Shown here: one piece after another, positions 13,772-58,533 of the stretch
Layout: every line of letters begins with the position of its first letter
How positions within the stretch are numbered: the stretch's first letter is position 1
Assembly (NCBI GenBank): GCA_963170055.1
Contig: CAUJGJ010000030.1
Span: forward strand, 282,001-346,000
Direction of reading: 5' to 3'
Source: Halisarca cf. caerulea
Lineage: Eukaryota > Porifera > Demospongiae > Chondrillida > Halisarcidae
DNA: 64,000 nucleotides
Position numbers and translations under genes: made by a program
The notes under the pieces: model-generated
Seen by the model: the letters and a program-made list of their open reading frames with translations, nothing else
Told to the model about the DNA's origin: nothing
The model's database searches: none

Positions 13772-13882
13772 TCAAGATGTCACAAAGCACCCCAATGCCA
13801 CACTCACAATTGACATCTCATGGAATGAGTCATTAGTTTGCAAACCCTCCAGACACTCATGATTGCTGATTCCACTGAAATC
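13772..13882 (-). CDS. Terminal exon of the NLR-like gene
   Basis: The acceptor is CTTGTAG, entered in phase 0; 36 codons are followed by TGA at 13772-13774. The product includes [14 protein letters not shown] and ends ALGCFVTS. The CxEG pattern is shared with the terminal exon at 56019-56189. The stop lies about 120 bases from the tandem repeat at 13351-13648, so the gene tail abuts the duplicated block. Confidence 0.75.
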   Translation of the reverse strand, partial: DFSGISNHECLEGLQTNDSFHEMSIVSVALGCFVTS

Positions 13883-16800
13883 CTACAAGAGAAGGATCAT
13901 CATAATATGATGCAATAAGTGCGTCATTCGTTGTGATTACCCTCTTACCGAATCAAAGTACAGGGTAGCCTTTTTAATGGATACCTCCTTAGCATTTGCG
14001 ATATCACAGAATACAGAGCAACAATTAGAGAGTGAAGCATGGCACTCCAGCTCCGCATCTTCCATCACAATAAACAGTTCTTTGCAGGCACCTACAGTAT
14101 ATATAGTGAATACAGAATGTAAATATCATAATACTGCAACTGCAGCAATGTACGTACGTACAGTGTAGGTACCCATTGCATCATAGATAAGTACTACACA
14201 ATATAGACCAACAATAAAGTGAATCCTAATCAATGAATTTTACCTTCTTGAATTTCAATCAAGGATTACGGCATAGTTAAGTTGGGGGCATTCCATTAAC
14301 TATTGACACCTTTGGCAGCAACTGACAGTAAAGTACGATGATGGAATGACAGCATTGTACCTTCTGCATATCTCAACATAATATTTTTTATGTTATAAAT
14401 GGAGTGCTAGTGGCAAAAACTAATACAAACTAGGATTAAGTAGGCTTTCCCTAAAGCAAATAAACACAAAGATCATGAAAACTCTAAATTTGTGAAATTG
14501 TCAGATTCATCCATGGCTACTACTGTCTGGACAGTGTCACTTAATTTCCATTTCAGCTTTGCATATCTGCCGATGAAGAAAGAGGCCTAGCCTATGTTCC
14601 AGGTTGAGGTGTGAAACCAACTAGTCTTGGCAGTATGCACTCATAAGCCAAGTAGACAGTATGGTAGATTAGTTCATAGTTAGCAACTGTAGGTGGTGGA
14701 AACGGTGTGGTCAGCATGGCTACAGCCGAACCAATCCCCAGCATGTAGGGGCTGAGCCATACTAAACCCACCTTGTTTGTAGCAGGAAACTGTTACAGTC
14801 TACTGAAGGCAAGTGGTTTTCTCCTTTAGTAACAATCCACTCCCAACAAAACTACACTATTCAAGAAATGTTCGTTTCAAAACAGCACTTTAGGTTGCTA
14901 GCATTGTCGGTAATTTTATCTATAGCCAAATCACTACTCAACAAGACGCCAATTTGTAGTGATGTGTCATGACGATAGATTTTACTGTGGGCCCACATGG
15001 CTAAAGATGTTGATATCCATGACTGTAATCATCAACAAGTAAAATAATCATATATGCCAGGGGAAATATTCACATGCACGATACCACAGATCCAAACAAA
15101 GCCGTAACAAACAAAAAATACTTCCTCGCCACTGATTAGAATGCTTAGAGTAGCCCACATAGACGTTTGTGCGTATTATGTAGTCAGTGACGTGTGATGT
15201 GTATTTACTGTATGTACATTAACTTTGTGGTGGTAAACTTTGCAGATCTTGGATTTTAGCAATGCGGTTATATATTTGCGGATGGCCATATTTTGCCATT
15301 GCACAAGAGCCTGATTTAAATTTTTGTAAGTGTAAACATTTACGGATGCCTCCTCATCTGCAAAAACGGTGAATATAAAACTATGTGAAAATTAAAGCAC
15401 ATATCAGTACGGCATTATGTTCTAACAGGCATGAGCCCTTTCATCTATTAAGATGAGTTTTATAGGGAGAACATGCAGCAGATTTGGCCAGATAGTCAGT
15501 TTCATTTACTAAAGTGAAGTGCATGTTTAGCTTGTGGTTGGTGTTTGAGTCCAACTTGGACAGAACACTACACAGTCACTATCAATCCTTAATGAGTTTT
15601 ACTCTGAAATCCTAAATGTAATTATAGAATCAACTGTTACCAGGGGGAGTAGGCCTTGAAAAGTGTTAGTGCTTTATTCTTATCTACGTGAGATTATTCT
15701 CAGTCAATGGTATCAAAATAGTGAATACGACATTTGATTTTGTCTCCATGCTAAAAAAAAACAGTTTGGAATAGCAATTGTAATCATAATTAAATAAGTA
15801 CAGCAAATATAAATTTTTGAATAATGGTCCATAAGAGTATTAGTACAAGTAGCAGTTCTCATGATATTTGAAATATGGGATGTGGCATAAGGGCTAAATG
15901 CAACCTATATACTGGATGTTCTGTAACTATGTAAATCCGTTTCTACTACATAAAAATGTTATGTAATTAGCTTACTACGTTTCGCGCGGAAAATTAAAAC
16001 GTTCTTAGTAATGGTTTGGATGTATCAAGGTACCTTAGTACGTTGTTGCTCCACGTTATAAGGCTCGTGTTGATGCTCTCTCCATTACTCCTCAAACTGC
16101 TGCTCTTCAGCCTGGCGTTCTGTTTCTGATAGTAAAAGAACGTCTTCATGGCCCAAATCGCCCTCATAATCGCCAAAAATTCGCAAAAAGATCTTCGTCA
16201 TCGTTCTATGTTGCTATAACGTTACATATATAGCATAAATTTCGAACGTACCTATCAGCTTACCACGTAGTGTTTAAACATTATATGCTAAACCTCTCTA
16301 GTAACAGCATTTGCTGAAGAAAAAGGCAATAGAGCAGCAGACTGCAATTTTTTGGCACAAAAAAACCTGTACGCGATTGGATGAAGCAAAAACTAACTCA
16401 TGATAAAAGTTAATGCTCAATTGAAATGTGCTGATTGTCCTGGCAGAAAGCCCCACTAGCCTTAGCTGGATTAGCACTTGGTGCTGTGAAGTATTATGAT
16501 ACATCATACACTTGGTTTTAGGTGCTGTCTAAACCATGGTGTGACTTATGCTAAACACTGTGACACCACAACAAAATGCAATTTGTATACAATATAACTA
16601 CCTAATCTTGAAAGATGGGTTTTAGTGATTTCTAAGGATTGCATAAAGTAATAGCCTTAACATTAGCCTTCAACAACTATAAATGATGTGCCAATACTTT
16701 GCATTTTAAGTGAAATCATAGGCACTATATACTGTCTATGGTGGAATGCAGGTGGAGTGCAAGCCTTGTGTTGAGATGTTTTCCAGTATTAGCATGGGCA

Positions 16801-19800
16801 GGGGGGTGAAGGTGAGGAGGATGCATATGTACCACTATCCTGTATCTGCCTCTGGTTTGGATACATTGCACAGATACAAATGAGCAAACACTTGCACAAT
16901 AAAAATGGTCAATTCTCGCAAGTCATAATAAGACATACATACCACGCTGGATTGTCGTGTTGGTTAAGATCAGTACATCACTGTCAGCAACTATCCACTG
17001 ACATTTGTCCTTTACCACATCACTAATATCAGCTTTTGAAATTGAAGACAGCAGACTCAATCCCAGTATGTACTGGTCTTGCCTTTGCACTGTGCCTTTC
17101 ACAATAGCCAACACTGCACTCGTGGATGGGCTGATGATCTCTGGCTGATGGGGTTTGGAAGAAGAGACACATATTATAACGAAAAAACAAAATCAAATAC
17201 AAAGCAAATTATCTAATGCATTTCAGTGAAATACTGTAAAACCAAATGGTACAGTAAAGGTATGTGACTGTGTAGTAAACACAAATATATCTGTGTACAT
17301 TGATTGTTTTTACATACTTATAGTGAGAACGTATTCCATACTGTACATATGGTTAGCAAGGAATGGAAAGTACTAGCAGGATCATAGCAACACTCGAGGA
17401 TCAATATTCCTTGTCATAGTGCCAGGTACAAAGAGGTTTCACTACATGCGTGTACAGTAGTTCACATGACATGAAAAACACGCTCAGAGTGCAAACAAAA
17501 TGCAGAGTACTTACATCAAACGTGACATTACACAGACGCATGTTCAAAGTAGAACATGCTTTCTCAAGGTCTTGGAGATCAGCATCATCTAAGGAGTCCC
17601 ATGACTTAACATGAACCTACAAAACATCAAACTACTGAGTAGAATGTACATACATAAGAAAGTGTATTCCATTGCATACAATGTACTCACATTAGATGTC
17701 ATTCCAATTGCCTCTGTACAGGGGAAATCAGTTGACAGTGTAGCTAGGAAAGCTTCTGGTGGTGGGCTGTTAAGTGTTACATCTGTTATCCTGTGGTTCT
17801 TCTTCAGTACAGTGGAGCACACCTTCCAGTCTACAGACATAATAGGCAGCAGTGAGACAAAGATAGTACAAGAAATGCTACAGCAACAAAAGAAAAGGAT
17901 ATTCTATGATGCTCCAGTTCAAACTAACTCACAAGACAAGTCGACCACCTAGCCATTTACAAAAGCTTAAAAAGGTTCAATATTCAGCTTAACTTGGAAA
18001 CTACATACGGTAAACAAGTATCTGAACTTAAATTGTGAAGTAAATGGAAAGGCAGATACACACTCATGTAGTTAATATAGTGATGGAATTCTACCTAGGA
18101 CAATCCGATCCCAGCAAAGTGCACTCTTCTCAAATACACAGAAATTATAGTGCACATAATATGCGGTACATTTGAATTGGATTTAAGACAAACACAAATA
18201 TCATTTGCTGTCTGTATTATTGTACACTGTACATTGAACAAGTTTTCAAACTCAACAATTACACACATCTGCCTCACTTTAGGTCAAGGGAAATAGCCGT
18301 GAGAAGACAGTAACAGTTTACTATAATTGTACTACCAACTATGTGTACTAAGGGGTTGTAGCTGTGCTTTGACCATACTATGAAAAGCACCATCACGGTG
18401 GCAAAAAATTCCCACAGTAAGAAGAGAGGACTTCAACGCGTAAAGACGCGACTATTCTAAAATTCTGTTCTTAACTTCTAAAAACCTCCAACTAAAGCTA
18501 GGGTAGATAGAAATGTACTAACCACGATAATCTGAGACGAAACGGCCTTTTCTGGGAATTCCACTCTTCATCAGTAGCACTGGGTAGAGCAGTAACGGAT
18601 GTTCCTTGGAAACCTCCCATCACGGGATTGGTCAAGGAAAATCCAAAACCGCTAGATGGTATTAAACAGACATCTTCACCAAACGCCTACATTAACGCCA
18701 AGTACCAGTTTGTTAGCAGGTCTAAAGTAGCAGCAAAGGGTGTAGTTGTGCTTTGACCATACTATGAAAAGCACCATCACGGTGGCAAAAAATTCCCACT
18801 GTAAGAAGAGAGGACTTCAACGCGTAAAGACGCGACTATTCTTAAATTCTGTTCTTAACTTCTAAAAAGCTCCAACTAAAGCAAGGGTAGATAGAAACCC
18901 TTTTGCTGCTACTTTCGTGGTTTATCGTGGTTAGTACATTTCTATCTATGTGTACTAAAATGTTCAAAGCTGAAGCCTACAATTACAAATGCATACAATA
19001 CTACTTTGGTATCCACTATGAATATCAGTGCCCTGAAAACTCACACAAAAACATCACTACACTACACTACTCTATGTGGTTCGCTGCAACCTGATAATAA
19101 GAGTCATCACGTGTAACCCGGCACTGAGCTTTACACAGATGATCAAGACTCCTCATAGCATATGGATGCAAATCCGATTCCATTTCACTACATAGTATGT
19201 ATGAAAGACTTCAAACAATTAATACTCAATTATAATGACATAATATATTCTAAATCATAATATCTTACATCAAAAAATGTCTGGATGAAATTCTACCTAG
19301 GACAATCTGATCCCAGCAAAGTACAGTCTTCTCAAATACACAGAAATTATGGTGCACAATTACACTTGAAATGGATTAAAAATGGACACAAATATCATTT
19401 GCTGTCTGTACTATTGTACACCGTACATTGGATCCCCCCTCCCCCCCACACAGGAAAATAACGCTGTATGTGGGATCCAGACTGCATGCTTACAAACCAA
19501 TCAAGACAACTTATGTGCATGACTCAAGGGAATCGAGTGAAATATGCATAATACAGGCAAACAAGACTCAATATGTATGTACAGTGGGCCCTGGTTCATC
19601 CAACCACGTTTGTTTCTCATAAAATGTCTCGGATAAACCAGGTGTTGGATAAATCAGGGTAAATGGTACACAGAGTGGTGGTGGTGATTCACAGCAGAGT
19701 GTCGGATAAATGAGGTTTTCGGATAAACCAGGTGTGACTGGATACTTGAAGCTCAAGTTGGCGAACTGCTGCATTGGATGATTATTTGCTGATAAAATGT

Positions 19801-22800
19801 GACATGTTCTATGTACGTATGTGCCCAAAGATAGCATACCTTCACATTGATCTAATATGTCAAAGAAAATCCACAATGTTCACGGCACCTACTATCATGT
19901 ACATCTTTACTTTTAGGAAATGAGCATGCCTCTTTCCTCCAGCAAATTCACACAATTATCATATAAACCATACAGTATGCTTCAATTTTAGTACTGTAGA
20001 GTTGAAACTTTCGCATGGTTAAAGTTTCGCGAATGAAGAAATTGCAAGATATTCACGTTTCTATTTTAGCGAATTATGCCTCTCACTGTAACGCCCCTGG
20101 CGTTTAACTCCTAGGTGTAAATGTAATCTCTTATATAATTACCCAATCAAAACAAGCATACACATGCCAAATAACAACAATGCTTGCTAATTCACACTAT
20201 GCATACGACCTAACATCAAGCATTGTCTACTATCCTATATAGTTAGATGTGGCTCTGTGCAGTGGCCACAATCATGTCTAGATCTGTTGCATGCCATTGG
20301 TCACTCCTGTCAGGGCGTCCTTGCCGAGATCGATGTCCTCCCAGGCAGAGTATGGCCGATCTGATCAAGGCAAATGTAAGGTGGCATCAAATCCATCTGA
20401 TGGTGGTACTAAGGATTGGTTTCTCTTCTCAGCAATCCATGTGGCTAGTCTTGCGCATGCTGCATCAGCTGATGGCCCAACTCCTCCTGATGTTGAAAAA
20501 ATATAAGTTGTGTGAATGTTCATCCTTCAACCTCTCCAATTCTCTCATCATATGACTGTTTCTTCTCATTTCCTTAGCTCTGTAGTAAGACTCTAGTGGG
20601 GTGCGACAATAGCTTGGTTTAACTCCTGGGTGGGCAGTTATTGGACATGACACGTGTTCACAAGGTTGTTGCTGTTGCAAAGCTCTCTTCCTTTTAAGTT
20701 TAGACATGGCAGCTGTTTCAAAGGGCACTTCGTACAATGAATAGCCTAATCTATTGAGTAATGGGCCATTGCTGGCTGAACAACGAATGGCCTGCATTTA
20801 CTCTGAATCGGATTATCATGCCTAGTGAACTTCTGCGAATTAAACTCTCATGAATGCCTCTTCATTCACGAAATACATGAAACTTTAACAGCACAAAAGT
20901 TTCCAACTTGTACAGTATTATACATACGTACGTAATTGTCTCACTGCCATTTAAGAGTAATGGAACAATTAGTCTAAACTGAGACCACGAGACCTTACAC
21001 TCTACTAAACAGTCACATACTGTGCATGAACAAGCCAAAACACACCTTCAGTAAGAAATGCATCGTCATAAACCTCCAATCCACACTGCAACTTCTTCAG
21101 AGATGGATGATGGACAATAGAGTCCGCTGCAAGGTGAAGATCAACCTTTGTATCATACCCAGCTGACATTGTGAGGCTGTGCAAAGAGGGGTGGTGCTCA
21201 AGTGCATAGCTCAGAGCAGCAGTTTCATACGAAGAAGACAGTTCAATAGTTATGTTCTCGGGAAAGATCTTGGGCAGTTCACGAGAGGCAACATCATCTG
21301 AACTAGCCTCAAACAGTGATATCAAGTATAGCTTATCAGAGTGAGCATTAGAAGACCCTATAATGCTAGACACATCAACATCTGCCAATTTAGTCAGTCC
21401 ACAAAAGAACTTCCACACTTCACTCATGTGGGGAAGGCCGAAGTGGTTTTGCCAAAGAACATTGTGTTCTGTACCTCCCAATCGACTGATGTGAACTGCT
21501 GCAAGGAATTCTTCTGTCGTCTTGTGAATGAAGTGGAAAAGCTGTAAAGCTGAAGATGAGCAGAGATTCTTCCCTGGATCGGAGAAAAGAAGTGAATATA
21601 GTGTTCCACGTTCATCGATGTGGTCTATCAGTTCTCCCAAATCATCTTGAGATAAAACAAGCTTCTGATCAATGGAGCAATGAAAAGCAACTTTACACAA
21701 CTCATAAAATTTAGGAAACACATTCTCTGGAACCCTTAGAATGTCCATGATAACAGTACCATGAGGAGTAGAGGGATGCTGCAGGAGTTGACGGCGAACA
21801 TACTCCTTATAGATACCTGTCATGGAATGAGGGAGATCACTGATGTCCAAGTAGCTACACACCTCACATACTATCTTCAGGACAACAGGAATATGACAAA
21901 GACCTTTTACGCGAGGAAGGAACTCTAGCCTTTTGATCAATTCGTCTGCAAGAGATGGAACACTGCTATTTGTTGTAGAGCTGCTGCTAGTGTTCTTGTC
22001 TTCCTTGAAAAACTTTCTTATGTATGATTTGATGGAATCATCAGAGAAACCCAAAATTTCAACAACACGATGAAGAGGATTCACGAGATTAAACAACTGA
22101 TGACAAACAACAGGTCGTGTAGTGACCACTATGTCACACCAGTGAAGGTACAATTTGGACTGAGTGAACAGGTGACTCCAGAATGGATTTCTCTGGAGGT
22201 GAGGACTCAGTTCATCATATCCATCAATGATCAGCAGAATACCTTTGCCATCTGTGCGCTCACACCATTTGCCGGCTTGTTTTGGGTCAGCTTTCCCATA
22301 GCAAGTTTGTAGTAAGTCACAAAGCTGGATATCTACGTTCTGCCTGTTTTGGAAGAGCAGGTTTAATTCTCGGAGCTCAATCAGCAAAACAAGGGAATAT
22401 TCCGAAGGCAAGACCTTTGCTGAATAGTCTTTACTGAGTTTTCTTGCCAGAGTACTCTTACCACATCCAGGTGCTCCACATATTACCACACGCTTACCTC
22501 TTCCATCAACAGAAGGATTGACCTGATCACATCCATCACCTTGCTGCCCGTTAAAGTGCAAAATGTCTCTATAATGGATAGTGTGAGATGCATGGAAAAT
22601 TTTGTCAATTCCCTTAACACTAGCATGCAGGAAGTCTTTAATGTCCTTTTCCTTCTTCATTCTGTGCCTCTCCTCTCGCTGAATCACAGCTAGTTGGACA
22701 AAGTCCATAATTGGCATGTCTTCATCCTTTACAACCTCTTCCAACAGTTTCAAGCGTTCTTCCTGATCATGTTTAAGTTGTAAGCAAGCCTAAAGGGATA

Positions 22801-28800: not shown

Positions 28801-29782
28801 GACCATTCTCAAGGTGAAAAACAATAATGCAACATAACATAAAAGGTATGTATATACCACTCCTACCACATATATATTGCAGCAAGCAACTTGTTGTAAC
28901 AGGGAATCTCTCACTAGCAGAGTATCACATTTAAACACAATGCACAGAGAAATTAAGAAGAGATTTACAAAGAGGCTGTTAAGATATTACTTCACAGATG
29001 GATTACTTATCACTTCGGACCTACCTTAAGTTGCTTAGTATAGTCATCATTGGCAGACAATGTATGGTCCTGAGGATGTGGATGAGAAAGGACTGGAGGA
29101 ACACTACTACGTGGGAAACCAGGATGTAGGGAGCCATACTCTGTCAGATATTGTACAGGATTCATCTATTAAGATATGCAGCAAAGAATACTTTTAAAAT
29201 TATATTTCAAATGTTATCCATCACTACACACTCACTCTATATAGCATAGCATGGCTACTGTAGACAGGGAGTGTTTGGCTGTAAGGATGTGGTTGAGGGG
29301 GAACTGCAGGGATACCACTGGATGGGGCACCAGCATGTACAGCACCACTTTGACTTGATGGCACAGGGGGGTTTCCCTGCACATTGACAATAGGTATACA
29401 TAATTCAAGAGCAGATCATCATAAAAAGAGTTAGTATGCAATAACTATAGACACTTACAACAAACTTCTCCAACATATCTGCCACCTCCCCATGTCTGTG
29501 CAGCTTGTCAACATCTGCAGCAAGTCTTAAACATTTTATGAACTTCTCGAAAACACCAGGAGTGATGTTGGACTGCAAGTACTCAAGCAAGATTTTATTT
29601 CCATCTCTTGTAGACTTCTCATTTGCCTTTTGGATGCGCTCTCTAACATCAGAAGTAATAACGCCTTTCTGCCAAAGATGTTCAGATAACTTGGCAGCTT
29701 GCAGTTCACGCAGTAAGATGGTGTTGTAATGACGAAGCACCTCCTCCACTATATACTGTTCATTTGAAGCAGCTTCATACAT
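13772..29782 (-). CDS. CARD-NACHT NLR-like receptor gene, nine exons (overview)
   Basis: Exons in transcript order: 29459-29782, 29236-29376, 29025-29165, 21046-22789, 17691-17830, 17515-17616, 16943-17144, 13949-14091 and 13772-13882. Every junction has GT..AG borders and matching phase, giving a continuous reading frame of about 1,010 codons. Domain order is CARD, Pro-rich linker with a short coiled coil, NACHT NTPase, an LRR-like stretch and an unnamed C-terminal module. In animals, NLR-type proteins are cytosolic sensors that oligomerise through NACHT and signal through death-fold domains; that role is inferred here. A further 5' exon may exist upstream of 29782. The 6.2-kb intron between exons 3 and 4 carries a Penelope-like element and MITEs. 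Confidence 0.85.
13949..14091 (-). CDS. C-terminal module exon 2 of the NLR-like gene
   Basis: The acceptor is ACTGTAG and the donor is GTAAGAGG, in phase 1 to 0 (47 codons plus two bases). It contains [19 protein letters not shown]. The EDxxLEC motif is shared with exons 2836-2972 and 56748-56884. The 2.8-kb intron before it (14092-16942) holds no other supported exon. Confidence 0.75.
14092..16942. other. 2.8-kb intron of the NLR-like gene
   Basis: AT-rich intronic sequence. It includes at 15230-15410 a diverged member of the repeat family seen at 28242-28440 (GCCATATTTTGCCATTGCAC in common with small changes). It also holds the interrupted 56-codon frame at 16034-16201, listed separately. 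Confidence 0.5.
16034..16201 (-). pseudogene. Interrupted 56-codon frame, possible exon
   Basis: From an ATG at 16201 the frame reads [20 protein letters not shown], then acidic and Gln-rich sequence. It meets one TAA at 16085-16087 and continues open ([17 protein letters not shown]) to a GTACCT donor-like site at 16033. The charged composition on both sides of the single stop looks coding. I do not recognise it. It could be a decayed first exon or chance. Confidence 0.25.
16943..17144 (-). CDS. C-terminal module exon 1 of the NLR-like gene
   Basis: The acceptor is CCCATCAG and the donor is GTATGTATG, in phase 0 to 1. Residues such as [20 protein letters not shown] and DSDVLILTN align with the GVLDKDAL..WWVWIWNG..MM pattern of the exons at 5734-5971 and 58293-58533, at low identity but with the same position and phases. 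The function of this module is unknown. Confidence 0.75.
17515..17616 (-). CDS. 34-codon exon of the NLR-like gene
   Basis: The acceptor is TTTTGTAG and the donor is GTAAGTAC, in phase 0-0. The product is acidic and helical in appearance ([17 protein letters not shown]). It has no recognised domain and is assigned by phase and splice signals between the LRR-like exon and the C-terminal module. Confidence 0.75.
17691..17830 (-). CDS. LRR-like exon of the NLR-like gene
   Basis: The acceptor is GTCTGTAG and the donor is GTGAGTAC, in phase 1 to 0. It joins the NACHT exon in frame to give a GAC codon. The product contains [20 protein letters not shown], reminiscent of an irregular leucine-rich repeat but without canonical spacing. 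A putative counterpart lies at 58860-59008. Confidence 0.75.
18082..18240. repeat. Direct repeat, copy A (pair at 19283-19434)
   Basis: About 155 bases starting GATGGAATTCTACCTAGGAC and ending in GTACATTG recur at 19283-19434 with scattered substitutions and small deletions. Both lie in the 3.2-kb NLR intron on either side of the foldback at 18357-18946. Confidence 0.75.
18357..18946. mobile_element. Compound repeat: two 157-bp direct repeats plus inverted segments
   Basis: The 157-bp units at 18357-18513 and 18741-18897 are nearly identical. The spacer starts GATAGAAATGTACTAACCAC (18506) and ends AAAGTAGCAGCAAAGGG (18740). Just after the second unit, 18898-18946 is the inverse of those two spacer ends joined directly. 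The spacer is therefore the same segment interrupted by about 190 bases, and that insert has a terminus like the MITE at 7348. It could be a miniature LTR-like element or a rearranged foldback MITE. Confidence 0.6.
19283..19434. repeat. Direct repeat, copy B (pair at 18082-18240)
   Basis: This is the partner of 18082-18240. It is followed directly by a C-rich run (CCCCCCTCCCCCCC). Confidence 0.75.
19582..19740. mobile_element. Tigger-type MITE (~160 bp)
   Basis: The left end is CAGTGGGCCCTGGTTCATCC after TA; the right end is GGATAAACCAGGTGTGACTG. The repeated word GGATAAA occurs four times. The CAGT ends suggest pogo/Tigger derivation. Confidence 0.55.
20245..20800 (-). pseudogene. Unidentified mobile-element-like ORF fragment
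   Basis: The minus frame 20465-20797 reads coding-like ([20 protein letters not shown], then a KLKRKRAL basic patch, then [20 protein letters not shown]). At about 20480 the coding-like signal moves to another frame, [20 protein letters not shown] followed by WIAEKRN, before a stop. I recall similar endings in sponge or cnidarian mobile-element proteins but cannot name the family. It lies in an NLR intron on the same strand. The frame break suggests a dead copy. Confidence 0.35.
21046..22789 (-). CDS. NACHT NTPase exon of the NLR-like gene
   Basis: The exon starts after TTTAG at 22789 and ends before GTGTGTTT at 21046, in phase 0 to 1 (581 codons). The Walker A motif GAPGCGKST lies at about 22477-22451. 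Walker B is [12 protein letters not shown], and the sensor-1-like segment is DIVVTTRP. The downstream winged-helix part includes [20 protein letters not shown] and [20 protein letters not shown], typical of NACHT C-terminal helices. The end carries two degenerate LRR-like repeats ([21 protein letters not shown]). NACHT domains bind ATP/dATP and drive oligomerisation. All key motifs look intact. No Met is needed at the exon start because it is internal. Confidence 0.93.
24280..24717. mobile_element. MITE with 24-bp inverted ends
   Basis: The left end TACCGTATAGCTGGAAAGGT pairs with the right end ACCTTTCCGGCTATGCGGTA, with two mismatches, and the repeat extends into TTGGC/GCCAA. TA lies at both edges. 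The interior is not coding; a GGCGGATTATACTTTGGCGG stretch is internal. Confidence 0.75.
24780..27540 (-). mobile_element. Penelope-like retroelement with flanking repeats
   Basis: The RT remnant at 25030-26450 is flanked by direct repeats at about 24785-25015 and 27190-27415. Both start near TCCAGTT..GG-CTATTGTTTAAC and contain ACAAAAATCAAACATCATTG. A third, inverted partial copy lies at 27449-27537. Penelope-like elements are known for such pseudo-LTRs in direct or inverted arrangement, so the structure supports the coding assignment. Confidence 0.8.
25030..26450 (-). pseudogene. Penelope-like reverse transcriptase / GIY-YIG protein, decayed
   Basis: Reading 5' to 3' on the minus strand: [20 protein letters not shown] (about 26200-26120), then SFDAVS and [20 protein letters not shown] (RT motif A region, about 25985-25880), then [20 protein letters not shown] (about 25745-25690). 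The usual YVDD appears as YVND. Last comes [20 protein letters not shown] followed by [10 protein letters not shown] (about 25300-25195), which fits a GIY-YIG endonuclease. Penelope-like elements combine exactly these two domains. Several stops and frame changes make it a pseudogene. Confidence 0.88.
28242..28440. mobile_element. MITE with perfect 16-bp inverted ends
   Basis: The left end TATACGCTTTAATTTT and the right end AAAATTAAAGCGTATA are exact inverses. The sub-terminal words GAAACTTTCA and TGAAAGTTT are also inverted. The interior GGACGGCCATGTTTTGCC is shared with diverged relatives near 15290 and 23727. Confidence 0.8.
29025..29165 (-). CDS. Pro-rich linker exon 2 of the NLR-like gene
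   Basis: The exon has 47 codons in phase 0-0, from acceptor TTAATAG to donor GTAGGT. The first part resembles the previous exon ([15 protein letters not shown]). The end (NDDYTKQLK) runs in frame into [19 protein letters not shown] at the start of the NACHT exon, forming a plausible short coiled coil. The same length and composition suggest an exon duplication. Confidence 0.75.
29236..29376 (-). CDS. Pro-rich linker exon 1 of the NLR-like gene
   Basis: The exon has 47 codons in phase 0-0 with acceptor TGTGCAG and donor GTGAGTG. The composition is Pro/Ser/Gly rich (for example [19 protein letters not shown]), with no fold expected. It joins the CARD exon to the next Pro-rich exon without a frame change. 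Confidence 0.75.
29459..29782 (-). CDS. CARD exon of the NLR-like gene
   Basis: The exon starts after CTACAG with ATGTATG and ends before GTAAGTG, in phase 0 at both ends (108 codons). From about residue 18 it reads as a six-helix death-fold domain of CARD type: [62 protein letters not shown] and a last helix VADMLEKF. CARDs mediate homotypic signalling contacts. The ATG at the exon start may be the initiator, or the frame may extend upstream because it stays open to about 29854. A DEATH-type domain is the main alternative; the [21 protein letters not shown] pattern favours CARD. Confidence 0.75.
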
Positions 29783-36522: not shown

Positions 36523-42971
<6,449 letters not shown>

Positions 42972-45133: not shown

Positions 45134-45577
45134 TCATCTTGTTCTCTTACTAGGAGGATTGTCAGTCTGGACAGATGATGACTTCTGTGGTATCCTTCCT
45201 CTGGTGTCTTTGCCTTTGGATTGACGAGTTTCATCTCTTCTGGCTTCAACACCTTCAGGAGAAGTGAGACTGCCTTGGGGTACTGGCTGTGCTGAGCTAG
45301 GCTGGTGGTCCATGGAATGATGAGGATAGTAGTCTGTGATGGCTGGTAAGCGTGAATGGTGTACAACTGTAGGTCTACATTCAGGAATCTCTGCAGATGA
45401 CTGCCATGCGGACTGCAATGGATGCAGGTCAGTTGGTGGCTGTGGACAGGGAAGAGAATGCTGATCCTGTGAGCATGGGATGAGGTCATTCTGACAGACA
45501 AGTCCATCCATAGTTGGAAACGAAAGGGGCATGCCCTCAAAGATTTCCTCATCAAAGTATATATCATCCAGCAAGGC
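45134..45577 (-). CDS. Terminal exon of an unidentified NLR-related gene
   Basis: The acceptor is TGTTTAG before GCC, in phase 0. It is open for 147 codons to a stop at 45134-45136. It starts ALLDDIYFDEEIFEGMPLSF and becomes Ser/Pro/Gln rich and disordered, with a basic end (PPSKRTR). It joins exon 47932-48177 in phase. A GTAAGAG donor-like site lies just before the stop (CCTCCTA then GTAAGAG), so the exon could instead splice onward. That exit would be phase 1, which does not match the first formin exon I placed. Confidence 0.6.
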   Translation of the reverse strand, partial: ALLDDIYFDEEIFEGMPLSFPTMDGLVCQNDLIPCSQDQHSLPCPQPPTDLHPLQSAWQSSAEIPECRPTVVHHSRLPAITDYYPHHSMDHQPSSAQPVPQGSLTSPEGVEARRDETRQSKGKDTRGRIPQKSSSVQTDNPPSKRTR

Positions 45578-46628: not shown

Positions 46629-46689
<61 letters not shown>

Positions 46690-47931: not shown

Positions 47932-48177
47932 AGAAAGGCTAGGCCTTGTTATGGAAAGTGTTATCTTATCCTCCTCTTTCCAACTCCACTGACAACTCAG
48001 GTCATTCTTAACTTCACTCAAAAGAGCTTCTTTATCAAGTACCCCATTAACTGTGCTCAGGACAAATTTGCAATTGCTGTCCCTTCTTTTGACATATCCA
48101 CTCACGAGTGAACAGAACAGGTCATTAACACATTCCAAAAATGGTTCCTTAAGATCTTCTGTACAAGCATATCCTAC
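47932..48177 (-). CDS. Module exon of the gene at 45-52 kb
   Basis: Acceptor ATCTGCAG and donor GTAAGTGA, phase 0-0, 82 codons. CVNDLFCSLVSGYVKRRDSN, CKFVLSTVNGVLDKEALLSE and CQWSWKEEDKITLSI align with the module exons at 5734-5971 and 58293-58533 (shared F-C-S, C-x..GVLDK-x-AL and Trp-rich end). The domain is unnamed. Unlike the other copies it exits in phase 0 into a disordered last exon, so the following EDxxLEC exon is absent here. Confidence 0.7.
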
Positions 48178-48965: not shown

Positions 48966-50864
48966 AGGTATTTTTAAGGTCTGAATCTGTGGTCGTTTTT
49001 TCGGCTTTGCGAAGTATTGACAACAAAGTTAAGTGAACTGTTGTAGTATTAAATAGTCATATCAATGTTTTGTATGCTTTTTGTATTCCATAAATACACT
49101 AAATGCAAGATAAGTGGGGGTTGATTTCAGCCGACTTTAGGGCGGCCATTTTGGTAACATTGCACATGTGCACATGTCACACCTGCGTGGAAAAAAAAAT
49201 CGAGCTAAGATCTTTACAGAAGAGACAAAAACAATGTATCTACTGTAGTACTGGGGAAATTATTACTCTTGAATTTCACAAATGGAATGGATGAAGTGAA
49301 GACTTTTGAGGAAGAGAAAGGCACAAAGGGCATACAAAGACTCTACAATGATACTACCAGTTCAAATCATTGGTTTGCTGAATGTACACCTGATGGTGTC
49401 TGTTGGACACTGTGGGTATGCAGAAAGACCTAATGGAACTCCAAACATTACTACATAGTCTGTACTAGCATCATTCATTCAGTTTGTGCTAAATTTAGGT
49501 CATTGTACTGTCATATATCAATTTAATGATTTACCAAGTTCTATAACAAGTGTGCATATGGCTGATGCCAACCAAGTACAGTTTAAGGAAATGTCTTTTT
49601 ACCAATGAAAGGGTTGCAGTCCTTGAGCCGCTCTAGGGGAAACAAATTTCAATTGAATCAGCTTCTGCAACTTGTACAAGGGGGTAGTCTCAGCATGTTT
49701 GAGTGGATGTACGTATGTTCCAAGGTTGCTGGCCATTAAAGCTTGTCAACAATAAGTCCAGACAATGTCAATACAGAATGAATGACTGAACAGTTTTTAG
49801 TTGATCTACGTAAAGGAATGTTTGCTTCTGGAATTGATGTATTATTAGAGCACTTTTAACATTGTCAGCTGTCACGGCAATAGACCAGAAAGTGAGGTAC
49901 GTAAGTGAACAAGTAGGAAAAAAGCTGGAATGGTATAGGGCAAAGCAGAGAGTAAGGTGGGACTGTCTCCTGATTACCATGACTACAGTACTTGAAGTTG
50001 TGTTTCTAGACATGACTGTTGGGGGGAAGAATTCTCACTTCTGTAAGTGGGAATAATCACAGTGATTGCAGCTCTTACCAGTTCCACATAGGGATTACTC
50101 ACAGTAAAAGAAGCTGTGGAGCAAACAGTGTACAGTGGCGCGCCGGCGGTAAATATTGACGTGTAAGCAGTGGATCTAAGGGGGTGGGGGGTTGGGGGTG
50201 TCCAGGGAACCCCTGTCAGCGTGAGGTCACAACAGGCATATGGTACAACCAGGTCCTAACACATTTCGGTTATAAGGTAGACAACTCGTGATACAAATCA
50301 GAATACACAGGTGATTAATGTGTACTGTAGCAGTCCCAAAAATCTAGTTTCAGCCCTTCAAATCAGCTGCGTAGCAGACCTGTGCTCTATGCTATTGCTA
50401 CTTCACTGTGATGTTACAGAGTATGAAATGTTTGCACAATCTACAATGATGGGCTCAACTGGCCCTTGATAACACGTCAACAACTACAGTATAGTATGGC
50501 AATTCTTCTAGAAAGAATAAAACATCCACAAAGATCCTTGCTATTAAAGTTTCACAAAGACCACATGCTTTGTCATGTAAGTGTCCACATATTTTGTAAT
50601 ATCCTTACTGCCCTTGGAATACTACTGCCAGGCCTGGAACTTTACTTCAGCGTCCGTGATATGCAGTGCATTGCACATGTGCATAGCACAAGGGTAATGT
50701 GTATCAACCAGAGGATACAATATGCACAGAACAATACCAACAGGATGCACTGTGATGAACCATGACTTACATTTTAAAGAGCCTGTTTGCACATGTAATG
50801 CAGCATGTATTACAGCAATAAGACTGGACCAACTGGTGTATGCCATCCTCCAGTCAAAGTAACA
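48966..50864. other. Intronic or intergenic, no supported gene
   Basis: Only short, unsupported open frames are present. An isolated GC-rich GGCGCGCCGGCGG word lies near 50137-50150. A G-run occurs at 50180-50198. Confidence 0.4.
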
Positions 50865-51009
50865 CAGTGAACCTCTCTAATCTGACACTCAATGGGCTTC
50901 AAAGAGGACAGATTAGGAGGTTGTCAGAATACAGAGTGACTATACCTCAGATGGTCAGAATAGAGAGAATGTCAGATTATAGGAATGACCGATCTCAGAG
51001 GTATCACTC
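50865..51009. mobile_element. Tigger-type MITE
   Basis: The left end CAGTGAACCTCTCTAATCTG resembles the inverse of the right end (CAGATTATAGG..TCTCAGAGGTATCACTC). The CAGTG..ACCTCT end type is the same as in the minisatellite flanks at 40865. Confidence 0.5.
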
Positions 51010-51584
51010 TATGCACAAAGCAAGTACCTAAAACTTCTGACGTAACAGCTGGATCCTGCCCAGGTGTGATAAGTAGCCACAACAGCTCCGTGTGTCTCAG
51101 CCAATCAGTTTGTCTATTATACAGCTGTAGCACACCTAGGCAGAATACAACTTGTACGTTCCATGATGCATACGAACAAAGAGCTGTACGTTTGTTTCTG
51201 AAAATGCTTCTATTTTTAAAGAAAGAGTTTCGGTTTCTTTAAAGAACTGGATAGCTATAAATTACAAACTTTCACATTGGGAAGACATTAGGACATTGAG
51301 GCTCTTAACATGGTTAGTATTTTTCATGAATAGAGCCAGCTTGTGTACCATGTCCTCCTACTTCTCAAAGCTAGTCTTGTGTTCCTTGTCTAGACACAGG
51401 GACTAGAGGTATTTAGACCCAAATACTACAGGTTTTACTCAATTGGTATGGTATTTTAAATCCAAGTGATACAAAAATTCTATTTTACGCTGGAAAAAGT
51501 GGTAGACTAGATGATTCGTTCACAGCTACCGAATAACAAAGGGCAGCAACTTTTGGCTATAATCTCTTTTATATGTATATTTAC

Positions 51585-51743
51585 TTGCTTCAAGTGAGAC
51601 AGATCTTGAACGATGTGATCTGTTGACATGTTCTCTGCAAACCTTTTGGCAGAGGCTACATCGTACAAACAAGAGGGATTACTGTACATGGTGGATGTAG
51701 TCCCTTTGTTTCCTTTGATCCCCTCAACATTCGCCCACACACC
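51585..51743 (-). CDS. Candidate upstream exon of the gene at 45-52 kb
   Basis: The acceptor is TCATGCAG before GGT and the donor is GTAAATAT, in phase 0-0 (53 codons). It reads GVWANVEGIKGNKGTTSTMY through RFAENMSTDHIVQDLSHLKQ. No recognised domain. Phase and strand are compatible with 47932-48177, but the link is inferred. No other exon could be placed in the 3.4 kb between them. Confidence 0.45.
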
Positions 51744-52156
51744 CTGCATGACATTTATACAGACATGATAAACACTACCACTGCCATATAACATGTACAG
51801 TACAGTTGCTATGCGCTTCCAATGAAAGAACACATAATGTACCCACTGAGTAAGCCAGTAGGCAATAGTACAGTACTGATCATAATTACACTGATACCAA
51901 CATACGAGTCTACACTAATTGGGGTTCAGTTAATACGAGTTGACCCAGGTTGATTGAGTGGTAACTCGTGCAGGGGGCGTGATCCGGGCAGGGTCAGCGC
52001 GGCGGCGTGACCACGTGGTGGCTTGAGCATGCGCAGTTCGTAGCCTTGTGCTCTAGCTGTCCTCATATTAGCGGTAGTTCTGCTGAGTGGAGTAAAGTTT
52101 ATTCTTCCAAGCGAAGTTTTTTCATGTGTTGTCGTTGGTTGATTCCCCACTTTATC

Positions 52157-53640
52157 ATGGCTGAAGGTGGTTTGCCTCCCAATGGTCCGGTTTCCCCCAC
52201 CGTGGCGGAGGATCTCCTCCAGACGGCGACGGTCCCCATCAACTTGGTCAAAGAGGCGGTATGTGGGGTAATGGTGGAAATGTTCCCGGGCTCTCAGCCT
52301 CAGCAAGTACCCGAACCAATGACTGGTGAGTGTCAGGGGGGAGTACAGTTATACTGCATGGCCTCAGCGTTCTGGGAGGTGTCTGTCCCAGAGGGGTTGA
52401 CATAATAGTCTTGCTTATTACTCTCCCCGGGTAGCGGGGATGACTCGGGTGTGTGGCATGTCTTACCATCCGCTTAGCTGTTAGTCAGAGGTTAGGTCTT
52501 TGAGGCAGGTAGGGGTAGTTCGCCATAGTGGGTGGAGGATGGCGGGTGCCTCCCCTTCCCCCCTATTTTGGTGGGGTAGTCCAGGCGTTGGGAGGTAGCA
52601 TTTTAGCTGACCAAGGGGTAGGGGCCAAGTGGTCCCACGGTGTTGTTAGTGGCTGGCGGGGGCAGGGAACCCCGCGACAGGGACGTGGTGGTCACGTGCT
52701 TCTCTTCTCTGTTCCTCTGCAGTTCGGCTGGGGGTGACGCCACCCCCGGCATCACTAGTTGGGCTGCCTTCAATGATGGGAAGTCTCACGGCACCCACCG
52801 CGGATACACTGGACACGGTCATGTCGGTGACATCCAGCTTGGCAGCCGGACCGGGCCCATCCAGAGGTGCTTCCCAGGTTGCCAACCTCCTTCCATGATC
52901 ACTGCCCGAGATGACCCCTGACCCCCAAGGGGGATTTACATGGGAGAAGGGCTTCTACCAGTGCCACTGAAGCTCGCAGTCCGGATTCGGCGCCACAAAT
53001 TTGTAGAGATGGTGGAGATGCTGCCAGAATTCTGGCCAGTAGCCAAGCCCGAGGAATTGGAGTCAAAGAAGGGTCCCTCACGTTGGGTGAAGCAGGTGAC
53101 GGATTTCCAGATGTGGCTACAGTGCTTCGCCACCTATTGTAGCATCTGGGGCAGATGGAGCCAGGCACCATATCCCAGAACTCATGGCGCATTTGATCAC
53201 AATTGCATGTGTGAGCTAGGACTTCGCAGGTTCGGCGTGGGTCCACTATGACTCTGCCTTCCGAAGGCAAGCAGCTATCATGGGTAACCAGAAGTGGTCC
53301 TAGATAAACCCGTCCCTTTATTCGATATGCTTCACGAGGCGGGCCCGGCAGTACAGTGCCCATTGCAGGCAGAGAACGACCCAGAGTTGCCCACCCGGGT
53401 GAACGCAGTGGAGTCTGCAGTATTGTCCCTGTCGCAGGCCAGACTACAGGGATCGGGTCAGCCTCCCAGGGTGACAACTGAGATTTGTCGGTCCTGGAAT
53501 ATGAATCGGTGTCAGTTCCTGCGCTGCAAATTTCGCCGCGCATGCAGTGTGTGCGGCGAGCCACATCCAGTGGTTGCCTGCCCAAGAGGCACTGGACTGC
53601 GGGAGCAGCAGAACACCCCGCTGCATGGTACAGGTATGGC
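52157..53640 (+). pseudogene. gag-like protein of the YR element, with probable intron
   Basis: From ATG 52157, exon 1 (MAEGGLPPNGPVSPTVAEDL and onward) ends before GTGAGTG at 52326. An acceptor CTCTGCAG at 52722 continues in matching phase (RLGVTPPPASLVGLPSMMGS) to a stop near 52896. After a frame change the structural part reads GEGLLPVPLKLAVRIRRHKF and VTDFQMWLQCFATYCSI at 52940-53145. After another change comes DPELPTRVNAVESAVLSL and a CCHC/CCCH-like knuckle (CRSWNMNRCQFLRCKFRRAC) near 53490-53560. Gag packages element RNA. Frame breaks show it is dead. Confidence 0.7.
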
Positions 53641-53706
53641 AAAGCAAGCCAGGAGGGAGGCACCTCATCCATACTGTAGCATATCTGCAGAGGTTTCCTA
53701 GCCCAC

Positions 53707-54464
53707 TTGTCGGAGAGTAAAGTGTCGGGGCAGACAGTTAAACTTTACTTGTCAGTGGTCTGCCATGTCCAGATCGCGCTGAGTCTGGGTGACCCAAGGG
53801 TGGCATCCATGCCGCAAGTGGAATACGTGGTCAGGGGGTACAAGAAGTGGGTGTCCACACCACCTAGGGTCCGGCTCCCCATGACTTTGGCTCTCTTGTG
53901 GTCGTTACGGGCGCAGTGGGAGTGGTTGCCAGACAGGGCGGATGCTACCATGCTATGGGCAGCAGCATGTATGTGCTTCTTCGGCTTCCTTAGGTCCGGG
54001 AAAGTGGTTGTACCTGATGGGGCAACGTTTGATGCAGAGGTCCATTTGGCGGTAGGGGATGTAAGGGTGAACGATCCGTCAAACCCAGAGTTCTTGGAGG
54101 TTAGGCTGAAGGCATCCAAGACGGACCCGTTTCGCCAGGGAGTCTCCATTTACCTTGGGAAGACTCACTCTGACATTTGTCCAGTCGCAGCTGTCCTCGC
54201 TTATGCTGTACAGAGAGGTCAAGCACCAGGCCCCTTCTTCCAATTCACCAGGGGCCACCCTCTCACAAGAGCTCACTTTGTGGAGGTGGTTCAGAGAGCT
54301 CTTCAGGCAGCGGGGTGTCAGCAGATCATTACGCTGGCCACATCTTTTGGATTGGAGCTGCAACCACAGCAGTGGCAAAAGGGGTCCCTCATTCCCTCAT
54401 CAAAACTCTGGGACGCTGGAAGAGTTCAGCATATACAGTGTATATCCGCACTCCGTGGCAATAG
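53707..54464 (+). pseudogene. Tyrosine recombinase of the YR element, copy 2
   Basis: The N-terminal helical part (SGQTVKLYLSVVCHVQIALS) and catalytic core (FFGFLRSGKVVVPDG, LKASKTDPFRQGVSIYLG, CPVAAVLAYAVQRG, LTRAHFVEVV) are in one frame. One G is missing from the run near 54330 relative to copy 1, moving the last part into frame 54177-54464: GHIFWIGAATTAVAKG and LGRWKSSAYTVYIRTP. The nucleophile Tyr region survives, but the Arg of the H-x-x-R motif is Trp. Copy 1 has the reverse: Arg kept, Tyr region lost. Confidence 0.88.
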
Positions 54465-56018
54465 ATTTGTTCAGTGTCTCAAACCTTGTGTTCTTGATCG
54501 AGTGGTGTTTTCTTTCATTAGTTGTTTTGTTGTCACAGTGTATTATTTCAAAAGTGATTTGTTGTGGTAATTATGTAATCAATGCCATGTGCTAGTAGTG
54601 GGCTTGGGGTCAGGTGGATCTTGTGCACGTGTCTTATACATGCTCCACCCTTGGGGTAGGGTTAGGCACACTCACCCCAAGACAATGGAGTTTCAGCGCA
54701 GTGAACAGATAGATGCCAGGCTACCCTTATAGGGAAAAAGTAGCTAGAGGGGTTAATGGGAGGCTCTGCACTATTTCCAGTGTCGTCATTCCTGTGACAG
54801 TGCTTCCAGCCTTTCCCTTCCGGTAACGTTACTTCCATTGACCTCTTAGCACCTGCAAACGGAGGAATATTTCAGGTGTTATACGCGGCGGGATTTCGGT
54901 TTTCTCAGTTAGGGGTAGCCTGCAGCTGCATGACTTGCCACCTGACCTGGCCCTTATGCCAATAGTGGGAAGGGTATGTTAGTTGGGGGGAAGTGGACGG
55001 ACAGTTGGGGGAATGCATTATAGGGTAGTTACGGGAATGGCAAGGGAATAGGTCAAATGTCTGGCATTCGTCTGAAACCCTGCTTTGGGGTTGGTGATGG
55101 GGTCCAGCGGACTATATAATCCCTACTGGCTGCCAGCGGGCCCCGTGACTACTCAATTAAGTGTAGACTAGTGCGCACACATGTTCAAATTCTACACTCA
55201 CACTAATCGGAAACACGTTAACACCATTGACTTGATAATACTGCTCAATTTTAGTTCAAAGAACTGCAAAACCTAAGACTTTGTAAAGTGCTGGGACTTG
55301 AATCATCTTATTCTGTCTGAAAAACTAGTAGCGATGTCCAAGAATGCGATTTTTTGTCCAACTGGATCGGCATTGGTGAAGAAGACTCACAAGTTGATGT
55401 GATACACTGACAACAAAGAAAATATCAAAGTTGGAGCTATCGGTAATATTAATGAAAAAAAGTTTACAAAACAGCCATCCTTGACCTACCACTCCAGGGA
55501 TATATCCACTGTCTTGGTTGTTTCTAGTATCATGGCTGGCGACACAATACTAAGTTGTTTTATTCTAAGTAGTAGTAGTAGTAGTAGCATTCTAAGGCCT
55601 TCTTCGTTCATAATATCTACAATCTATGCCAGCAACTTCGATTCTACAACGAAAGTAAGCTGACAAACAAGCAGGCATTCTTCTTCGAACTTGATACAAC
55701 CATGCATAGATACAAAGTGCAATTTGTCCTTTCGAGGTCGATGTCTATCAATTTGTCCTATCGAGGTCTATTAATTATGATCACTACTATATGTGGGAAC
55801 TCACTATGTTGATAGAGACTGTTTTCAGATGTGTTGCTTCATACCAAAGATCCTCACCTTCTCTATAAGAGAAGCCATAATCACAATGGTCCTCTTCTGA
55901 GCACTGAGGGAATGGAGCAATAATGTACTGCAGTCATACAAGTCAATAGCAGTTTAGTAACTTTTTTTCCAAAATGAGAATTGTACAATGTGGAATTCAA
56001 GCTGCACACATCCTACCC

Positions 56019-56189
56019 TCAGGTGGTAGATAATCCTACTGGATTATGAAGAATAACAACATGGGCAGGAGGTACTGTGTGTTCTATAAGAAAGTAATAG
56101 AGTTTTAAACTATCCATGCAATTACACACAGCATACAGACTAATGTCTGACAGTTGAGTCCAAAACCCCTCCACACACCATATACTTCC
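56019..56189 (-). CDS. Last exon of NLR-related gene, copy 2 (intact)
   Basis: Acceptor AACCAG then GGAAGTATATGG, entry phase 0; 56 codons to TGA. It reads GSIWCVEGFWTQLSDISLYA and ends HNPVGLSTT. The frame joins 56748-56884 without shift. Copy 1 lost two bases here. Part of the unnamed C-terminal module. Confidence 0.65.
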   Translation of the reverse strand, partial: GSIWCVEGFWTQLSDISLYAVCNCMDSLKLYYFLIEHTVPPAHVVILHNPVGLSTT

Positions 56190-56747
56190 CTGGTTGCTAT
56201 CAAGCACTACAAGCTACTACCTACATACCTACCCAATTAGCACAGATAAACATGTCATAACAACCTACAAACAGGTCTGACCTGACATCATGCTACAGAC
56301 CTCAGAGGTCTGATATGAGACAATGTACTGAATGTAATTACCATAGATTAATATGTGTAGTAGTGTAAATCTATGGTAGTTTGAAGACAGAGACATTGAA
56401 GAAACATTACTATTGTGTACTTGTGCTCCCTTGGAAACAATCATTTATGCTCATTTCCATGGGTTTACTAGAATCCAAATGCCAACAGCACCTTGCTGTG
56501 GGCATTTGGAAGCCATGCTTTATGACGAGATTGATCATAATTTTGATTTTCCTTCATAGCCAAGACATCAAAACTATTAAGAATTGTAATCAAATTTGCA
56601 TGGATTCCAAATAAATGACTTTACATACTAAAACTACATGTGTGCTATCCACAAGAACATAAATTATGTAAAAGGTATGATTATGTAAATGATGTTCTGA
56701 ATTAACCTAATGCAGACAATGCAGTATAGTTATGTTTGTCAACTTAC

Positions 56748-56884
56748 ACGGAGGTGAAGGTCTATATAGACATTTTGCAGATGATATCTCTGAGCAAATA
56801 CTATAACCAGGATATCTATGACATTGACCGGTATACAGCCACACTCCAATGAGCAGTCCTCAGTCAGAAAGCCATTTGGAAAAT
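56748..56884 (-). CDS. Penultimate exon of NLR-related gene, copy 2
   Basis: Acceptor ATTGCAG and donor GTAAGTTG, phase 1 to 0. It contains FLTEDCSLECGCIPVNVIDI and ends QNVYIDLHLR. The same length as copy 1 (137 bases), with about a dozen amino-acid differences and no stop. EDxxLEC is also in exon 13949-14091. Confidence 0.68.
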
Positions 56885-56929
56885 CTGCAATGAATAACAG
56901 AGAACTTCATCATGAAAACAACATCTACA

Positions 56930-57600
56930 TTTGCTTACACATGTAGATAAGTACAAACGTGTACACATGTATTGTACGTACACACTGCTATCCTTCAATA
57001 CTGTCGCCTTTGCTACTATGTAGCTGTACAATTCATTACTATTAAAATGTGCAATGCATTATGGATTCATATAACTCAATATAAAACAAACTAGCAGTAA
57101 TAATACATAACATTTAACATCTGCTCACATGATCTACAGAACCTTCAGGTTGCATGCTGGTGACTTCTAAAGATAAGTTAGAGCTCCTCAAAATGTGAAC
57201 ACTACTTTCAAGAAGTTAGAGTAATAACACATGTTCTTTTAAATTATGCAGTCAAATGCTGTCAACTTTACAAAATAATATGCTAAGATGTCTGAATGGT
57301 TACTGTTCTATGTCCTAACTCTTGTTCTAATCATTATCCTATGCGTATAGTTCAGCCTATGAACAGAGAAAGGCAGTACAGAATAACAAAAAATGTTCTC
57401 AACAAACAAACAGGAGTAAAGTTATTGATAGGATGTTGCTTTGTGCAGATTTTGCCTTATAGCTCTGTACTTATCTCATGAAGACAACATTCCTTAATGT
57501 ACAGTTTTCTACTTTGAGGTAAAGAGTTAGTGTGGATTGTCTATGTAGCAGAGACCATAATAATATAGAAATGCTCAACAAACATTCGTTCTAGATAGAA
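56930..57600. other. Copy 2-private intron insertion
   Basis: About 0.65 kb is present here but absent between the equivalent points of copy 1 (near 3015-3025). No terminal repeats or coding sequence were recognised. Confidence 0.45.
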
Positions 57601-58141
57601 CCCTAGCTGTAAAGTCTGTTCTACCTCAACATGTACGGACAAGAAACTGCTGGTCTACTCTACATAAACATTATAATGATAACAATTTTACCAAAAACAA
57701 ACAGTTTTATTAGCGCAGATCAGACACAAAGACCACTCCTATGGAATAATTCATGGAAGATACAGAATCAATACAGTCAATACCACTTATAATTGGGACC
57801 CTGATAAAAGGGGATTTTCTCTTTAATGGGACATTTCAAGGATTATTTACATACAAAATCCACATGCCAAGGGAAATTCCTTTTGCTAACAGGGATGGTC
57901 TAGACAGCAGCATACTGCTTATATAGTTCTATTCATTGCATATTATATTCTAGTGTTGCTTGTCTCCTATTGGCTTCCTATTTTACACCTTAAGTTTGTA
58001 CTTTAATGTAAATGTAAAGTACTAATATATCCTTATTGGTATAATTCTGATAATCTATTGACAGTGGCAGTGAAATGTGTAAACTTGGGGCTGGGATGGG
58101 GGGGGGGGGGGTACAATGCACGTAGCAAATGATTGCATCTT

Positions 58142-58179
58142 ATCCTTTGATCTGCTTGAGAGGAAGCAGATCAAAGGAT
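58142..58179. repeat. Perfect 16-bp hairpin, copy 2 only
   Basis: ATCCTTTGATCTGCTT pairs exactly with AAGCAGATCAAAGGAT around a 6-base loop. It lies just after a 12-G run (58098-58111), at the point where copy 1 has a LINE tail (5411-5487) instead. Confidence 0.85.
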
Positions 58180-58292
58180 GGCTGCCCCCCCCAGCCCTCC
58201 ATTCCAATGAACAAGATGTAGCAATAATCAATCACATAGAAGGACATCCATTGTGCTGGGATATGCTCGAGGTCAGTAATAGGTAGACTCAC

Positions 58293-58533
58293 CCGGAACG
58301 CTATACAGTTCAGGAATGAACACCATCATAGTGCATCCATTCCAAATCCAGACCCACCATTCTTCCACAGACTCTACAGCCTCCGCAAGAGCATCTTTAT
58401 CAAGCACCCCAGGGTCAGCAGTGATACAACACAAATTACAGCCTTCACCATAATGCATTACACGTTCTTTCATACAAGCAGAGCAAAATTTATTCAAATC
58501 TCTCAGGAACACGTTGTCCCTGTTGGAGGTGAT
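58293..58533 (-). CDS. Module exon of NLR-related gene, copy 2
   Basis: Acceptor CCCTGCAG before ATCACC, donor GTGAGTC, phase 0 to 1, 80 codons. DLNKFCSACMKERVMHYGEG, CCITADPGVLDKDALAEAVE and WWVWIWNGCTMMVF match copy 1 exon 5734-5971 and, more distantly, 47932-48177. The downstream exons stay open, so this copy could still encode a full C-terminal module. Its 5' exons, including any NACHT, would lie beyond the window. Confidence 0.7.

What the first reader, a model, noticed from the sequence alone, without database searches (positions are those of the whole stretch)
13772..58533. A shared three-exon C-terminal module in a local family of NLR-related genes
Three loci end in three exons with the same phase pattern (0 to 1, 1 to 0, 0 to stop): the CARD-NACHT gene (16943-17144, 13949-14091, 13772-13882) and the two duplicated blocks (5734/2836/1995 and 58293/56748/56019). 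The middle exons share EDxxLEC. The first exons share a GVLDK-x-AL-like core followed by an aromatic/Trp cluster, also present at 47932-48177. I cannot match it to LRR, WD40, TPR or ankyrin. If real, it is a non-LRR or highly diverged C-terminal region on animal NACHT receptors.
Basis: partly seen in the sequence, partly recalled or inferred. Interest (0 to 1): 0.8.

Follow-up and report, generated by a model that had tools for sequence, protein, structure and literature searches.

The report
Diverged repeat tail of immune receptor
The supposed new three-exon ending of these animal immune-receptor genes looks instead like inner stretches of one long receptor tail that has changed so much that standard tools no longer recognise it.

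Summary
The exons are largely real, but probably not three gene ends. The window lies in a 194-Mb genome with three tandem units (A, B, C; 51 and 55 kb apart), each holding a CARD-NACHT gene. The window's gene joins nine exons; acceptors, inner donors and frame persist in A and C. First exons: 5971-5734 resembles 48177-47932 (0 of 400 shuffles), 17144-16943 resembles 48177-47932 (1 of 400), but 17144-16943 does not resemble 5971-5734 (222 of 400). The EDxxLEC likeness of the middle exons is not significant (76 of 400). The third exons fail as described: at 13882 all three units keep a splice donor 75 bases in, and the stop behind it is missing in C; at 1995/56019 the frame needs another entry phase. 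My reading: one receptor gene per unit runs through all these exons, which descend from leucine-rich-repeat exons of related NLR genes in this genome (E5 and E7 match theirs, 0 of 400 each). Against it: no Pfam or PDB match, no enrichment of the LRR motif, some exon pairs match out of order. A distinct alpha/beta domain is not excluded. No RNA data were available.

The parts
29459..29782 (-). E1, CARD-like exon (unit B gene)
   Evidence: Pfam CARD 21.8 bits, below cut-off 23.9; frame kept in A and C
29236..29376 (-). E2, linker exon
29025..29165 (-). E3, linker exon
21046..22789 (-). E4, NACHT exon ending in an LRR-like start
   Evidence: Pfam NACHT 74.6 bits, cut-off 26.7; AlphaFold model and NLR folds
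17691..17830 (-). E5, matches exon a of related NLR genes
17515..17616 (-). E6
   Evidence: match to exon b not significant
16943..17144 (-).
   Evidence: matches exon e of related NLR genes
13949..14091 (-). E8, middle exon with EDAELEC, phase 1 to 0
13808..13882 (-). E9 short, phase 0 to 0, ends at a donor kept in 3 of 3 units
   Evidence: stop in units A and B, absent from the stretch shown for C
5734..5971 (-). M2e1 (unit B), phase 0 to 1
2836..2972 (-). M2e2 (unit B), EDCSLEC, phase 1 to 0
1995..2059 (-). disputed third exon (unit B): acceptor kept, stated phase does not fit
58293..58533 (-). M2e1 copy (unit C)
56748..56884 (-). M2e2 copy (unit C)
56019..56083 (-). disputed third exon copy (unit C)
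47932..48177 (-). M3e1 (unit C), GVLDKEAL and CQWSW, phase 0 to 0; the unit B copy lies outside the window

Best explanation
Each of three tandem units carries one long CARD-NACHT receptor gene of the NLR type. After the NACHT exon it goes on through E5, E6, E7, E8, a short E9, then M2e1, M2e2 and M3e1; the true last exon was not found. These exons descend from the leucine-rich-repeat exons of related NLR genes in the same genome but have lost the repeat consensus. Mechanism, inferred from known NLRs: the tail folds back on the NACHT core and keeps it closed; a ligand or partner bound by the fast-changing tail frees the NACHT domain to exchange nucleotide and assemble, and the CARDs then recruit a CARD-bearing signalling protein. 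Shown here: exons, phases, tandem units, NACHT domain and fold, exon likeness of E5 and E7. Inferred: splicing from E9 to M2e1 and from M2e2 to M3e1, the repeat fold, sensing and signalling.
For: Nine-exon gene, 1015 residues, consistent phases; in units A and C 9 of 9 acceptors and 8 of 8 inner donors kept, no stop or frameshift in E1-E8, E7 longer by 36 and 9 bases. E9 donor after 75 bases in 3 of 3 units; M2e1 238, 241 and 274 bases, same phase in 3 of 3; M2e2 137 bases in 3 of 3. Seven NLR genes of this genome are 35-41% identical to the NACHT exon; exon series after NACHT in some of them. E5 matches exon a and E7 matches exon e: P 0.00016 and 0.00031, each best in its row and column of an 8 by 8 table, 0 of 400 shuffles each; M3e1 vs exon h 1 of 400. 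Exon i ends before a donor in phase 0 and exon h follows, phase 0 to 1, as E9 short and M2e1 do. The NACHT model ends in strands at 512-517, 538-543 and 566-570 with helices between, block pLDDT 65-89. A repeat HMM made from the relatives: 1 of 500 shuffles for E5-E9.
Against: No LRR in Pfam for this tail nor for two relatives' joined exons and none in PDB by sequence. LRR strand motif not enriched: loose motif 3 seen, 5.8 expected in E5-E9; 2 seen, 6.6 expected in M2e1-M3e1. In the 8 by 8 table E8 and E6 match exon i best (0.0036, 0.0073) and E9 short matches b (0.01), out of order. M2e1 vs h 142 of 400, E8 vs g 17, E9 vs i 27, E6 vs b 37 of 400. The repeat HMM gave 18 of 500 for M2e1-M3e1, no better than 27 of 500 for a CARD control. 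Joining E9 to M2e1 needs an intron of 7836 bases, M2e2 to M3e1 one of 9949. The stop behind E9 is at the same place in A and B.
Confidence: 0.5

Rival explanations
1. Same single gene, but E7, M2e1 and M3e1 encode a distinct alpha/beta domain (helix, strand, helix, Trp-rich hairpin), present three times behind a short LRR-like stretch.
For: M2e1 and E7 each resemble M3e1; LRR motif not enriched; the model of M3e1 shows helix 7-30, strand 36-41, helix 49-56, strands 62-68 and 71-76.
Against: That model has mean pLDDT 57.5 from 5 sequences; the first part of E7 matches exon e of the relatives' series.
Confidence: 0.2
2. Alternative endings: the gene splices from E6 or a later exon to one of several terminal sets, so one receptor gene makes several tails.
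For: First exons of the sets start in phase 0, as after E6; stops behind E9 agree in A and B; a third-exon acceptor near 2059 is kept in 3 of 3 units and in phase 1, as behind M2e1, gives a similar short ending.
Against: Unit C lacks the E9 stop in the stretch shown; no third exon was found behind M3e1.
Confidence: 0.12
3. One reading: separate neighbouring genes that each end in the same three-exon module.
For: Phase pattern of the first two exons agrees.
Against: Third exons fail in frame or conservation; comparison of the three units showed no CARD or NACHT exon between the sets (outputs cut or filtered).
Confidence: 0.1
4. M2e1, M2e2 and M3e1 are relics no longer in use.
For: dN/dS near 1 in several pairs: M2e1 0.76-1.05, M2e2 0.68-1.14, M3e1 0.47-1.34.
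Against: No stop or frameshift in the three exons in three units, lengths change by multiples of three, splice sites kept.
Confidence: 0.08

Closest known systems
CARD-NACHT-LRR receptors of the NLR family (NLRC4, NOD2; NLRP3 for the NACHT part)
   Different: CARD score just below the Pfam cut-off; no recognisable LRR in the tail
Sponge NLR repertoires, for example Dysidea avara (PMC12909245; abstract, passages and section 3.5 seen)
   Same: many NACHT genes in one genome, some with CARD
   Different: there a gene counts as a bona fide NLR only with a recognised LRR; this gene would not be counted. That the window's genome is a sponge was not tested

Membership tests
NLR (CARD-NACHT-LRR) | NACHT domain | tested here: met
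   74.6 bits, cut-off 26.7; NLR folds top the list
NLR (CARD-NACHT-LRR) | N-terminal CARD | tested here: inconclusive
   E 0.00019, 21.8 bits, cut-off 23.9
NLR (CARD-NACHT-LRR) | recognisable C-terminal LRR | tested here: not met
   no Pfam LRR; three other NACHT proteins carry precomputed Pfam LRRs, so Pfam can see LRRs in NACHT proteins
Leucine-rich repeat (tail exons) | repeated LxxLxL strand motif | tested here: not met
   not enriched in E5-E9 or M2e1-M3e1; relatives' series p 0.05 and 0.11
Leucine-rich repeat (tail exons) | exon homology to LRR-like exons of relatives | tested here: inconclusive
   met for E5 and E7, suggestive for M3e1, not for M2e1; others weak
Leucine-rich repeat (tail exons) | solenoid fold of the joined tail | not testable with these tools

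The most novel reading that the evidence does not exclude
Behind a short repeat stretch the receptors carry three copies of an undescribed alpha/beta domain (helix, strand, GVLDKxAL-type helix, Trp-rich hairpin) as their sensing tail, built from phase-compatible exons and changing fast among tandem gene copies.
Probability: 0.2. Interest if true: 0.65.

Novelty: new variant of a known kind. Interest (0 to 1): 0.4.

Why it matters
Surveys count a sponge receptor as a true NLR only if an LRR is recognised. [quoted passage not shown] A clade whose tails Pfam does not see, although exon order and some exons are shared, could explain part of that gap, and makes it testable: search by exon homology and phase instead of LRR models. 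It would also show how far a sensing tail can drift from its consensus.

Tried and rejected
A rigid 28-residue LRR profile gave no signal in the tail, but missed a diverged part of P0028 too. The HMM of relatives' repeats has low power: two stretches of NACHT-LRR proteins used as positive controls gave 176 and 95 of 500, the end of E4 161 of 500, NACHT control 208, CARD control 27; whole tail 49 of 500 (the cut between E5-E9 and M2e1 was 11 residues too late there). Exon h vs M3e1: 19 of 150 shuffles with two sequences, P 0.043 with three, 1 of 400 by global alignment. The 13 comparisons are not corrected for number. A coding-signal scan over 761 frames did not put the module exons in its top 60 and ranked antisense frames high, so it does not decide. 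Exons behind M3e1: none recognised. Relatives elsewhere: the M3e1 profile gave 4 proteins of 14 candidates (76-90% identity), the E7 profile 5 of 784 at E up to 10 (82-85%); no distant relative, but this search needs shared 5-residue words. In the own genome E7 and M2e1 gave 3 places each, M3e1 3 plus 2 weak ones. The weak model of M3e1 was not used for a fold search.

Full report
What is there. The window is G000:C30:282001-346000 of an unnamed 194-Mb genome in which the NACHT model finds 68 places, a lower bound. Three of them lie near each other on C30, at about 253, 304 (in the window) and 359 kb, all on the minus strand; DNA comparison shows three tandem units, called A, B and C here.

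The gene. Nine exons on the minus strand join with consistent phases to 1015 residues. In units A and C, 9 of 9 acceptors and 8 of 8 inner donors are kept, E1-E8 show no stop or frameshift, and E7 is longer by 36 and 9 bases. The start resembles a CARD but stays below the Pfam cut-off; the NACHT domain is clear. The AlphaFold model of the NACHT exon from 28 sequences has mean pLDDT 64.8 and ends in three strands with helices between; its best solved relatives are NLRC4, NOD2 and NLRP3.

The modules. First exons: M2e1 vs M3e1 0 of 400, E7 vs M3e1 1 of 400, E7 vs M2e1 222 of 400; hhalign P 0.00044, 0.03 and 0.3. Middle exons E8 and M2e2: 76 of 400, so the EDxxLEC likeness may be chance. Third exons: E9 has a donor after 75 bases in 3 of 3 units, TCAATT|gtgagtgtgg; the stop behind it stands at the same place in A (TAA) and B (TGA) and not in the 60 bases shown for C. 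The end at 1995/56019 lies in a frame that must be entered in phase 1, while the middle exon ends in phase 0; from the kept acceptor in phase 0, A and C stop after 15 residues and B stays open. In phase 1 the frame ends alike in B and C and slightly earlier in A, so some terminal exon there remains possible. M3e1 has no second or third exon that I could recognise.

One gene per unit. Seven NLR genes of this genome that I sampled from the list are 35-41% identical to the NACHT exon: C114, C308, C5, C290 and three on C172. Exon series after NACHT were read in C172, C290, C5 and partly C114 and C308. E5 matches their exon a and E7 their exon e, each best in row and column of an 8 by 8 table (P 0.00016 and 0.00031) and 0 of 400 shuffles. 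Against order: E8 and E6 match exon i best (0.0036 and 0.0073) and E9 short matches exon b (0.01) in the same table. In C172 and C5 exon i (90 and 87 bases) ends before a donor in phase 0 and exon h (223 and 235 bases, phase 0 to 1) follows. E9 short (75 bases, phase 0 to 0) and M2e1 (238 bases in B, phase 0 to 1) have the same order and phases; M2e2 ends and M3e1 begins in phase 0. One gene with these exons in a row is the simplest reading. It needs introns of 7836 and 9949 bases, and no read shows the joins.

LRR or not. For an LRR origin: the place in the gene, the end of the NACHT model, E5 and E7, M3e1 vs h at 1 of 400, a repeat HMM at 1 of 500 for E5-E9. Against: no match in Pfam or PDB, no enrichment of the strand motif, which is itself only borderline in the relatives (p 0.05 and 0.11), M2e1 vs h 142 of 400, 18 of 500 for M2e1-M3e1 against 27 of 500 for a CARD control, and a low-confidence model of M3e1 with a hairpin. 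I therefore do not file the tail as an LRR; I say that it most likely descends from LRR exons and takes their place.

Evolution. dN/dS is 0.60 and 0.44 for the NACHT exon (B vs A, B vs C). In the tail it is 1.30 and 0.86 (E5), 4.7 and without synonymous change (E6), 0.39 and 0.58 (E7), 1.99 and 1.13 (E8); the linker exons E2 and E3 also reach 1.5-1.6. M2e1, M2e2 and M3e1 lie between 0.47 and 1.34. These are small counts without a test of positive selection.

Relatives and print. The database holds relatives of the NACHT exon down to about 30% identity (best 7992 candidates scored), but for E7 and M3e1 only copies of 76-90% identity. Four paper searches listed no title on such a tail in the rows shown; one paper was opened, PMC12909245 (abstract and outline, passages, section 3.5). 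Absence from print is not claimed beyond these.

Noticed in passing
9272-10162 (-) and 11185-11787 (+): Transposase-like frames, Pfam DDE_1 (52.2 bits) and DDE_3 (61.1 bits), lying in the inferred intron between E9 and M2e1; parts of 11.4-11.7 and 8.7-9.0 kb have copies at 62.2-62.5 and 61.3-61.6 kb in unit C.
   Followed up: partly
45137-45577 (-): A 147-residue proline-rich open frame 2.3 kb downstream of M3e1, similar in units A and B, without a Pfam match at E 0.01; might be a gene of its own or an exon.
   Followed up: partly
1995-2059 and 56019-56083 (-): Acceptor kept in three units with a short similar ending if entered in phase 1, as behind M2e1; a possible alternative last exon.
   Followed up: partly
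40951-42444: Two blocks of a 30-base tandem repeat that is open in frames on both strands.
   Followed up: no
53680-54570 (+) and 60470-61111 (+): Long frames that look like a tyrosine recombinase and a reverse-transcriptase remnant (look recalled; no Pfam match at E 0.01); the first lies in the GC-richest part of the window.
   Followed up: no
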